A DNA stretch of 64,000 nucleotides from Rubrobacter indicoceani (GTDB lineage Bacteria; Actinomycetota; Rubrobacteria; Rubrobacterales; Rubrobacteraceae): positions 496,001 through 560,000 of the forward strand of contig NZ_CP031115.1 of NCBI RefSeq assembly GCF_003568865.1, in the 5' to 3' direction. The translations under genes and the position numbers were made by a program. Shown here piece by piece: positions 1,199 to 24,398 of this stretch. The notes below the pieces were generated by a model that worked only from the letters and a program-made list of their open reading frames with translations, was not told the origin of the DNA and did not search any database. Each line of letters begins with the position of its first letter. Positions within the stretch are counted from its first letter, which is position 1.

Positions 1199-1981
1199 AT
1201 GAGCTTACCGCTTTACACCGGACCCGGCACGAACGCGCTGTTCCTGCACGGTTTTCTCGGTTCCGGAGCCGACTGGACCGGCCTCGCAGGCGACCTCCCC
1301 TTCCGCCTCCTTGTCCCGGACCTCCCCGGACACGGAGCGGCCGTCGGGCTGCCACAGGAGCTTTACTCGATGGAAGGCGCGGCGGAGTTCATGCTTTGCA
1401 TGCTCGACGGGAGAGGCGTGGAAACCTGCAACATCGTCGGCTACTCGATGGGCGGCAGGCTCGCCCTCTACCTCGCGCTTCGACATCCGGAGCGGGTGAA
1501 GGCCCTTGTCCTTGAGTCGTCCTCCCCCGGTCTTAAGACGGAAAAAGAACGCGCAGCCCGCAGGAAGTCCGACAAACGACTTGCAGACCGACTCGAAGCC
1601 TCGGATAGAGAAGACCTCCGTTGTTTCCTTGAAGGCTGGCACCGTCAGCTGCTCTTTGCTTCGCTTGCAGACCATGAAGGTCTGACGGAAAAACTCGTCG
1701 CCGAACGCTTGAGCAACGACCCGAGAGAACTCGCGAGGTCCCTGCGCTCGATGGGGACCGGAAGCCAGCCGTCGCTCTGGGACGAGTTGCCGGACCTGCG
1801 GGTCCCGACCCTCGCCGTCGCCGGAGAACTCGACGGGAAATTCCGGGGCATCGCCCGTGAGATGGCCCGACTCTCCGAGAACATAGAGATCGTCGTCGTC
1901 GAGGGGGCGGGGCACAACGTACACGTCGAGAAGCCGCAGGAGTTCGCCCGGCTTGTCGGAAGTTTTTCGAGAGAGGACTAG
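1199..1981 (+). CDS. menH: MenH, SHCHC synthase (alpha/beta hydrolase)
   Basis: A 260-residue alpha/beta-hydrolase that eliminates pyruvate from SEPHCHC to give SHCHC in menaquinone synthesis. Visible motifs are HGFLGSG at residues 17-23 (oxyanion-hole region), PDLPGHG around 40-46, the nucleophile elbow GYSMGG with Ser83, a strand followed by GELDG holding the likely catalytic Asp, and GAGHNVHVEKP holding the catalytic His. Pattern and length suit MenH. Position settles the assignment over a generic hydrolase: it lies directly upstream of menB-menC-menE. The start at 1199 is preceded by a GGAG that sits unusually close to the ATG. Confidence 0.88.
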   Translation: MSLPLYTGPGTNALFLHGFLGSGADWTGLAGDLPFRLLVPDLPGHGAAVGLPQELYSMEGAAEFMLCMLDGRGVETCNIVGYSMGGRLALYLALRHPERVKALVLESSSPGLKTEKERAARRKSDKRLADRLEASDREDLRCFLEGWHRQLLFASLADHEGLTEKLVAERLSNDPRELARSLRSMGTGSQPSLWDELPDLRVPTLAVAGELDGKFRGIAREMARLSENIEIVVVEGAGHNVHVEKPQEFARLVGSFSRED

Positions 1982-1990
1982 AATACCCGC

Positions 1991-23338: not shown

Positions 23339-23411
23339 GCCCCCGTGGCCCGATTGGTTAGGCACATCCCTTGCACGGCATGTCAAGCGGGTTCGAATCC
23401 CGCCGGGGGCT
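23339..23411 (+). tRNA. tRNA-like gene with defective anticodon stem (identity unclear)
   Basis: Seven perfect acceptor pairs (GCCCCCG with CGGGGGC), a D arm GCC-CGATTGGTTA-GGC and a perfect T arm GCGGG-TTCGAAT-CCCGC give a 72-base body with discriminator T; no CCA is encoded. The anticodon arm does not fold normally. The stem CATCC faces GGCAT(G) and pairs fully only if one base is bulged. The best loop is CTTGCAC, giving anticodon TGC (Ala), but the acceptor lacks the G3-U70 of tRNA-Ala. A GCA (Cys) reading gives an unusual C37. It may be a decayed or unconventional tRNA, or carry a sequencing deletion. Gene-finder classification would be needed. Confidence 0.6.
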
Positions 23412-23669
23412 CACTTTCCATTATCCAGCATTTCATAGCTGTGGCAAGATCAAGTAGGGCTTAAGCTCTCCAGACCATCGTCTCTACACTTCAACTAGAC
23501 GCATAAAGCGGACTCGCGCCGACAAGCATCTATCTTAACTCAAGGTGACAGTTTTGGTCGTCTGAGAGCGATGGTCAGCAGGCTGATCTGAAACTCGCTC
23601 CTCTTGTCTTTGGGTAACGAACGGGATTTTCGGGTACGGGTTTCTTCACAAGCGATGCATGGAGGGAAT

Positions 23670-24398
23670 ATGTCCGAGAACGAAGGCAGACTGACCGAGG
23701 GACAGACCTTATCGAACTTCAAGCTGCCGGACGAGAACGGTGAGCCGTTCGAACTCTACGGAAGGCTCCGGGAGAAACCGCTGGTGCTGGTGTTCTACCG
23801 GGGCGACTGGTGACCGTACTGCAACGGGCAGCTGGTCAGCTTTGCCAGGAGTTACGGAGAGTTCGAGTCGCGAGGGTTCGGGGTGGCTGCGATCAGCGTC
23901 GACCCGCCGAGCCGCAACCGGCAGATGGTCGAGAAGCTTGATCTTCCGTTCACGCTGCTCTCGGACCCGAGGGGTGATCTCATAAAAACCCTCGGCCTCT
24001 GGAACGAGAAGGAGGGCGTCTCGGAGCCCGCTATCGTGGTCCTCGACGGGTCCGGGGAGGTCAGGTACGCCTACTCGGGGGGTGGGGACTTCTCGGACCG
24101 CCCGCCTAACGAGATCCTCTTCGAACTACTCGACGGGACTGAGCCCGGGGGAGAGCCGGGGGACGGAGGGCCGGTCGTGAGCGTCTCGGCCGAAGAGGCC
24201 GAAAACGAGACCGTACGACCGGAGAAGCCCGTTCTGCCGCTCGGAACGCTGAAGCCCTACTATCTCGGGGCGCGCTTTGCCACTATCGCCATGCAGAAAA
24301 AGCTGGACGGCGAGGCGAGGGAGAAGGTGGACGAGTACCAGGGGCTGGTCAAGGAGTACGAGGCGGCGGTCCGCGAGACGATCGAACAGAAGGCCTGA
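23670..24398 (+). CDS. Selenocysteine-containing peroxiredoxin-like protein (in-frame TGA at codon 48)
   Basis: The thioredoxin-fold, AhpC/TSA-like protein has 242 residues if TGA at 23811-23813 is read through. Homologues I know have FYRG-x-W-C-P-Y/F-C; here the sequence is FYRGDW-TGA-PYC, so the TGA takes the place of the catalytic Cys and Cys51 is the resolving partner (UxxC). The frame is otherwise intact on both sides: LPDENGEPFELY upstream, then FGVAAISVDPPSRNR, FTLLSDPRGDLIKTLGLW and AIVVLDGSGEVRYAY. The last 70 residues form a charged helical extension. GGAGGG precedes the ATG. A bacterial SECIS-type hairpin follows the TGA. It would reduce peroxides or act as a thiol oxidoreductase. 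Confidence 0.88.
23811..23857 (+). promoter_or_regulatory. Bacterial SECIS element
   Basis: Directly after the TGA, CCGTACT (23814-23820) pairs with the AGT-TACGG run ending at 23857, with one bulged T. Inside lies a second stem: GGC-A-GCT (23827-23833) with AGC-T-(TT)-GCC (23838-23846), a bulged TT and the apical loop GGTC at 23834-23837. The E. coli fdhF SECIS also has a GGUC apical loop, a bulged U and about the same distance from UGA (the loop starts at base 22 there and 24 here). This fits SelB recognition. Confidence 0.75.

What the first reader, a model, noticed from the sequence alone, without database searches (positions are those of the whole stretch)
23670..24398. A peroxiredoxin-like selenoprotein with TGA in place of the active-site cysteine
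The frame is unbroken on both sides of TGA 23811-23813 and encodes FYRGDW before it and PYC after it, so the stop occupies exactly the first Cys of the family WCxxC motif (UxxC). A random nonsense mutation would hit that one codon only rarely. The downstream hairpin provides the required decoding signal. If right, the organism makes selenocysteine, and automatic annotation would truncate this protein at 47 residues and call the rest a second gene.
Basis: partly seen in the sequence, partly recalled or inferred. Interest (0 to 1): 0.9.

Follow-up and report, generated by a model that had tools for sequence, protein, structure and literature searches.

The report
Selenocysteine-containing peroxiredoxin-like protein in Rubrobacteraceae
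A gene that looks broken by a stop codon encodes a redox protein in which that UGA codon is read as selenocysteine; the evidence is strong, but proteins of this kind and selenium use in this bacterial group are already known.

Summary
ATG 23670 to stop 24396-24398 is one frame, broken only by TGA 23811-23813 at codon 48 of FYRGDW-U-PYC. The protein matches AhpC-TSA (PF00578, 7e-31). The genome, of the Rubrobacter family, carries selA, selB, tRNA-Sec and selD; SelD and two formate dehydrogenases also have TGA at their usual Sec sites. Twenty intact family loci (this one included) have TGA at exactly this codon; six homologues have TGC. Codons after the TGA are under purifying selection. The decoding hairpin AGCU-GGUC-AGCU fits the published bacterial SECIS model: synonymous sites are frozen and one loop-closing pair covaries (G-C to A-U). 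All four UGA genes found in this genome have a GGUC loop at +22 to +27. One refinement: Sec sits at the thioredoxin-type first position of UxxC, where peroxiredoxins have Thr; Cys51 aligns with the peroxidatic Cys, and the Pro, Thr and Arg of the peroxiredoxin site are replaced. It is a peroxiredoxin-like UxxC oxidoreductase, a known predicted selenoprotein kind. Sec insertion and catalysis were not shown experimentally.

The parts
23661..23665 (+). ribosome-binding site GGAGG, 4 nt before the ATG
   Evidence: read directly
23670..24398 (+). peroxiredoxin-like selenoprotein gene, 242 residues with Sec at 48, ends with TGA 24396-24398
   Evidence: (PF00578 7.1e-31)
23811..23813 (+). in-frame UGA read as selenocysteine (codon 48)
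   Evidence: conserved in 20 intact family loci
23820..23822 (+). TGC codon of Cys51, second residue of UxxC, aligned with the peroxidatic Cys of peroxiredoxins
   Evidence: invariant
23814..23857 (+). SECIS-like element with its lower stem (CCGUA 23814-23818 with UACGG 23853-23857)
   Evidence: 51-nt MFE fold -14.5 kcal/mol
23827..23846 (+). conserved core hairpin: GGCAGCU 23827-23833, tetraloop GGUC 23834-23837, AGCU 23838-23841, 2-nt bulge, GCC 23844-23846
   Evidence: synonymous freeze and G-C/A-U covariation across the loop ends

Best explanation
This is a genuine selenoprotein gene. Inferred by homology with the known bacterial pathway: SelB carrying Sec-tRNA-Sec binds the GGUC-loop hairpin whose core starts 13 nt after the UGA and inserts selenocysteine at codon 48. 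SelA converts seryl-tRNA-Sec using selenophosphate from SelD, which is itself a predicted selenoprotein here. The product is a 242-residue protein with a thioredoxin/peroxiredoxin fold and the redox motif W-U-P-Y-C. Inferred: Sec48 is the attacking residue and Cys51 the resolving partner in a thioredoxin-like cycle that reduces disulfides or peroxides. Shown here by sequence: machinery, frame, conservation, hairpin, selection. Not shown: Sec insertion itself, the substrate, and the catalytic role. The confidence given is for the selenoprotein claim; for the thioredoxin-like mechanism I would give about 0.7.
For: The genome holds tRNA-Sec (62.9 bits, above cut-off 47; ARAGORN tRNA-SeC with anticodon TCA), selA (2.9e-150), selB (618 aa, order selA-selB-selC) and selD (3.2e-103) with its own UGA at AG-U-ASK. 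Two formate dehydrogenase genes have TGA at the canonical U-H site. 20 intact family loci have TGA, six homologues TGC, one GAC and one TCC at the same codon. Codons +5, +6, +9, +11 and +12 after the TGA (GGG, CAG, AGC, GCC, AGG) are identical in 20 of 20. Codons +7/+8 are CTG-GTC (17) or CTA-GTT (3), a linked synonymous change that keeps the loop-end pair; Cys homologues are freer. All four UGA genes have GGUC starting at +22 or +24 with a paired stem; only 3 of 1397 TGA triplets in the window have GGUC there with a stem of 4 or more. dN/dS is low after the TGA. TGA-type UxxC relatives occur in many phyla.
Against: No protein or selenium-labelling data. A 39-nt fold prefers another hairpin, though that one has no covariation and has broken pairs in three orthologues. 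The core hairpin is weak alone (-5.7 to -7.1 kcal/mol) and passes the published -7.5 limit only when flanking pairs are included. The only other genome of the same genus (G001) lacks the Sec version. The two closest Sec orthologues lie in MAGs, 82 and 88% complete, where no selA or selB was found.
Confidence: 0.96

Rival explanations
1. The gene is a pseudogene or a sequencing error: a nonsense mutation hit the first Cys codon.
For: One base separates TGA from TGC or TGT; one relative (G029, L052) looks decayed, with two TGAs and a TAG.
Against: Same TGA in 19 other intact family loci and in over 100 loci from many phyla; purifying selection after it; conserved SECIS-like hairpin.
Confidence: 0.01
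2. UGA is read through by an ordinary near-cognate or suppressor tRNA (for example Trp or Cys) rather than as Sec, or the first 47 residues and the rest are two separate products.
For: An unusual tRNA-like gene lies about 260 nt upstream (23339-23412); a GTG start exists at 23883.
Against: The anticodon of that tRNA is not UCA and it is not seen near other family loci. A complete Sec system and a SelB-type hairpin are present. The Cys homologues are one uninterrupted protein.
Confidence: 0.02
3. It is a selenoprotein, but works as a peroxiredoxin proper: the peroxide is reduced at the peroxiredoxin site, with Sec taking the peroxidatic role.
For: PF00578 match and best structural matches to AhpE and Bcp.
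Against: In the alignment with a solved peroxiredoxin Sec48 faces the Thr/Ser position and Cys51 the peroxidatic Cys; the conserved Pro and Arg are R44 and P120 here, both invariant in the family. Known Sec peroxiredoxins carry TxxU (PMC13188914).
Confidence: 0.15

Closest known systems
Prx-like thiol:disulfide oxidoreductase, PF00578, UxxC (PMC13188914 Table 1; Prx-like 1 in PMC2398784)
   Same: Same Pfam domain, same UxxC motif, Sec/Cys pairs at the same place, SECIS directly after UGA.
Redoxin family selenoprotein, PF08534, UxxC (PMC9312934, PMC13188914)
   Same: UxxC motif; the window protein also matches PF08534 at 6e-19.
   Different: Better score to PF00578; reference sequence not available here.
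Peroxiredoxin-like family cd02970 (PRX_like2; from memory: CxxC with the second Cys at the peroxidatic place and the rest of the catalytic triad missing)
   Same: Same site anatomy by the alignment.
   Different: The cd02970 selenoprotein listed in the review carries UxxS, not UxxC; the CDD model was not run.
AhpE of Mycobacterium tuberculosis (1xxu, 4x1u)
   Same: Best fold match, TM-score about 0.88 on the target over some 150 columns.
   Different: AhpE is a one-Cys peroxiredoxin; here UxxC, no peroxiredoxin triad, extra C-terminal region.

Membership tests
bacterial selenoprotein | in-frame UGA with homology on both sides | tested here: met
bacterial selenoprotein | Cys homologues align to the UGA codon | tested here: met
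   six TGC homologues
bacterial selenoprotein | Sec machinery selA, selB, selC, selD in the genome | tested here: met
bacterial SECIS model (PMC13188914 Fig. [quoted passage not shown]
   GGUC, or AGUU in three orthologues
bacterial SECIS model (PMC13188914 Fig. 2A) | upper stem 4-16 bp | tested here: met
   AGCU/AGCU 4 bp, then 3 more beyond a 2-nt bulge
bacterial SECIS model (PMC13188914 Fig. 2A) | 16-37 nt between UGA and apical loop | tested here: met
   20 nt
bacterial SECIS model (PMC13188914 Fig. 2A) | MFE at or below -7.5 kcal/mol | tested here: met
   -14.5 with lower stem (51 nt); core alone only -5.7 to -7.1; bSECISearch itself was not available
bacterial selenoprotein | Sec present in the protein | not testable with these tools
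   needs mass spectrometry or labelling
Prx-like UxxC oxidoreductase (PF00578) | PF00578 domain with UxxC | tested here: met
canonical peroxiredoxin | PxxxTxxC plus catalytic Arg | tested here: not met
   R44, U48, C51 and P120 at these places
canonical peroxiredoxin | peroxidase activity | not testable with these tools
   needs purified protein

The most novel reading that the evidence does not exclude
The Rubrobacteraceae proteins form their own subfamily of UxxC oxidoreductase, with about 90 residues beyond the domain and a peroxiredoxin scaffold that has lost its own catalytic triad. Selenium would have been gained or lost more than once within the family (Sec, Cys, Asp and Ser occur at one codon), and partner and substrate would differ from known Prx-like selenoproteins.
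Probability: 0.3. Interest if true: 0.4.

Novelty: new member of a known kind. Interest (0 to 1): 0.27.

Why it matters
A gene that standard translation splits into a 47-residue fragment and a second gene is one intact redox protein. With SelD and two formate dehydrogenases, this genome has at least four predicted selenoproteins. The family, with Sec, Cys, Asp and Ser at one codon and a SECIS relic in one Cys copy, is a good set for studying Sec/Cys exchange. The class and the trait are already published, so the gain is a corrected annotation and a clear SECIS example.

Tried and rejected
A 60-nt fold starting at 23806 and a 39-nt fold gave a GACC:GGUC hairpin with z-scores near 0. It was rejected because three orthologues break it and it has no covariation, while the AGCU-GGUC-AGCU hairpin is kept in all. 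Rfam found no SECIS family in the region. A search of plasmid records to name the organism gave no identical record, only a Rubrobacter marinus plasmid at 82% over 5% of the query; the taxon rests on that and on L080, a Rubrobacter MAG. A shared gene neighbourhood was sought and not found. A literature search for Rubrobacter with peroxiredoxin-like selenoprotein found nothing.

Full report
What is in the sequence. The frame from ATG 23670 runs to TGA 24396-24398 and is interrupted once, by TGA 23811-23813, codon 48. Read with TGA as Sec, the protein is MSENEG...LVFYRGDW-U-PYCNGQLVSFAR..., 242 residues. It matches AhpC-TSA (PF00578) at 7.1e-31 from residue 11 to 133, straight across the TGA, and Redoxin (PF08534) at 6.3e-19. 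A GGAGG lies 4 nt before the start codon.

The organism can make selenocysteine. The window lies in a 3.08-Mb, three-contig genome. It holds a tRNA-Sec gene above the Rfam cut-off (ARAGORN: tRNA-SeC, anticodon TCA; again), selA (2.9e-150), selB (618 residues) and selD (3.2e-103, one in-frame TGA). The order is selA-selB-selC on one strand. SelD reads ...SSKAG-U-ASK, a known Sec site (UxxK, PMC13188914). Two formate dehydrogenase genes also have TGA before the conserved His (SCNRA-U-HAASV and NQARI-U-HSATV). So at least four predicted selenoprotein genes are present. The lineage is the Rubrobacter family: a plasmid segment resembles Rubrobacter marinus, and a Rubrobacter MAG (L080) is the closest named relative (50% identity). 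Rubrobacter xylanophilus is already listed with five selenoproteins (PMC1794560).

TGA is conserved, not an accident. Among 30 homologous loci from 40 genomes of the family, 20 intact ones (this one included) have TGA at exactly this codon, in seven genera. Six have TGC, one GAC and one TCC. One (L052) has a duplicated W-TGA motif plus a TAG and looks decayed, and one (L053) did not match the motif. NG86 estimates between the window gene and G032 (69% identity) give dN/dS 0.27 before the TGA and 0.26 after it; other pairs are also well below 1. In these the frame stays open a median 118 codons past the TGA.

The decoding signal. In the 20 loci the codons GGG CAG CTG GTC AGC ... GCC AGG after the TGA are frozen at synonymous sites (five codons identical in 20 of 20), whereas Cys homologues vary. 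The only change is CTG-GTC to CTA-GTT in three loci. Both changes are synonymous and occur together, turning the loop-end pair G24-C27 into A24-U27 while keeping the inner G-U. The published bacterial model asks for G in the first two loop positions, mostly as N1-G[G/U]-N-N2 with N1 and N2 paired, a 3-9 nt loop, a stem of at least 4 bp, 16-37 nt from UGA to loop, and MFE at or below -7.5 kcal/mol (PMC13188914). The hairpin meets all of these, the energy only when flanking pairs are included (-14.5 kcal/mol over 51 nt; -5.7 to -7.1 for the core). The four UGA genes of this genome all have GGUC starting at +22 (two Fdh) or +24 (Prx and SelD), each in a hairpin. In the window as a whole 3 of 1397 TGA triplets have this with a stem of four or more, the Prx presumably among them. 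From memory, GGUC is also the loop of the E. coli fdhF element. A rival short-range fold was tested and lacks support. With few sequences and one covarying pair the covariation alone is modest; the synonymous freeze and the shared loop carry more weight.

What the protein probably does. An AlphaFold2 model (mean pLDDT 83) has the thioredoxin/peroxiredoxin fold with a helix starting just after Sec48. Its best solved matches are AhpE and Bcp peroxiredoxins (TM-score about 0.88 on the target). In the sequence alignment to a solved peroxiredoxin, Cys51 falls on the peroxidatic Cys and Sec48 on the Thr/Ser, as in thioredoxin CxxC. The peroxiredoxin Pro and Arg are replaced by Arg44 and Pro120, invariant in the family. 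I therefore infer a thioredoxin-like cycle with Sec48 attacking and Cys51 resolving. The substrate (disulfide or peroxide) is unknown. The gene stands alone, and its neighbours are not shared with the relatives examined.

Evolution. On a maximum-likelihood tree built without the Sec residue, the 18 Sec rows need two changes of label against a mean of 7 when shuffled, so Sec is old in the family. L037 (TGC) retains most of the SECIS sequence and may be a recent Sec-to-Cys exchange, but the inner branches are weak. selA is found in all 22 well-assembled genomes of the family.

Verdict. The kind is known: PF00578 UxxC selenoproteins were reported in metagenome surveys and are listed as high-confidence predictions (PMC2398784, PMC13188914). 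This is a new member of a known kind.

Noticed in passing
window 23339-23412 (+): tRNA-like gene (Rfam 40.5 bits) that ARAGORN cannot assign: 4-nt anticodon 'tgca', extra base in the anticodon arm; not found near related loci.
   Followed up: partly
L037 (G018) 1274-1987 (-): Cys (TGC) homologue that keeps most of the SECIS sequence, a possible recent Sec-to-Cys exchange.
   Followed up: partly
L052 (G029) 1501-1887 (-): Orthologue with a 12-bp tandem duplication giving W-TGA-PDW-TGA-PDC, and a TAG downstream: decayed or mis-assembled.
   Followed up: no
L046 (G012) and L049 (G061): Asp (GAC) and Ser (TCC) at the Sec position in otherwise open frames.
   Followed up: no
G008:C1:423350-423811, G019:C1:1160184-1160651, G025:C41:3052-3522: A second Prx-like frame of 309-328 codons with one TGA, 38-41% identical: maybe another selenoprotein.
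   Followed up: no
G032 (L025) and G036 (L026): Closest Sec orthologues (69-70%) sit in MAGs without detectable selA or selB that also hold a stop-free paralogue: missing contigs or contamination.
   Followed up: partly
G000:C1:94671-95360 (-), L177: Paralogue in the same genome with FYRGDWCAYDN: keeps the first Cys, lacks the second (CxxD).
   Followed up: no
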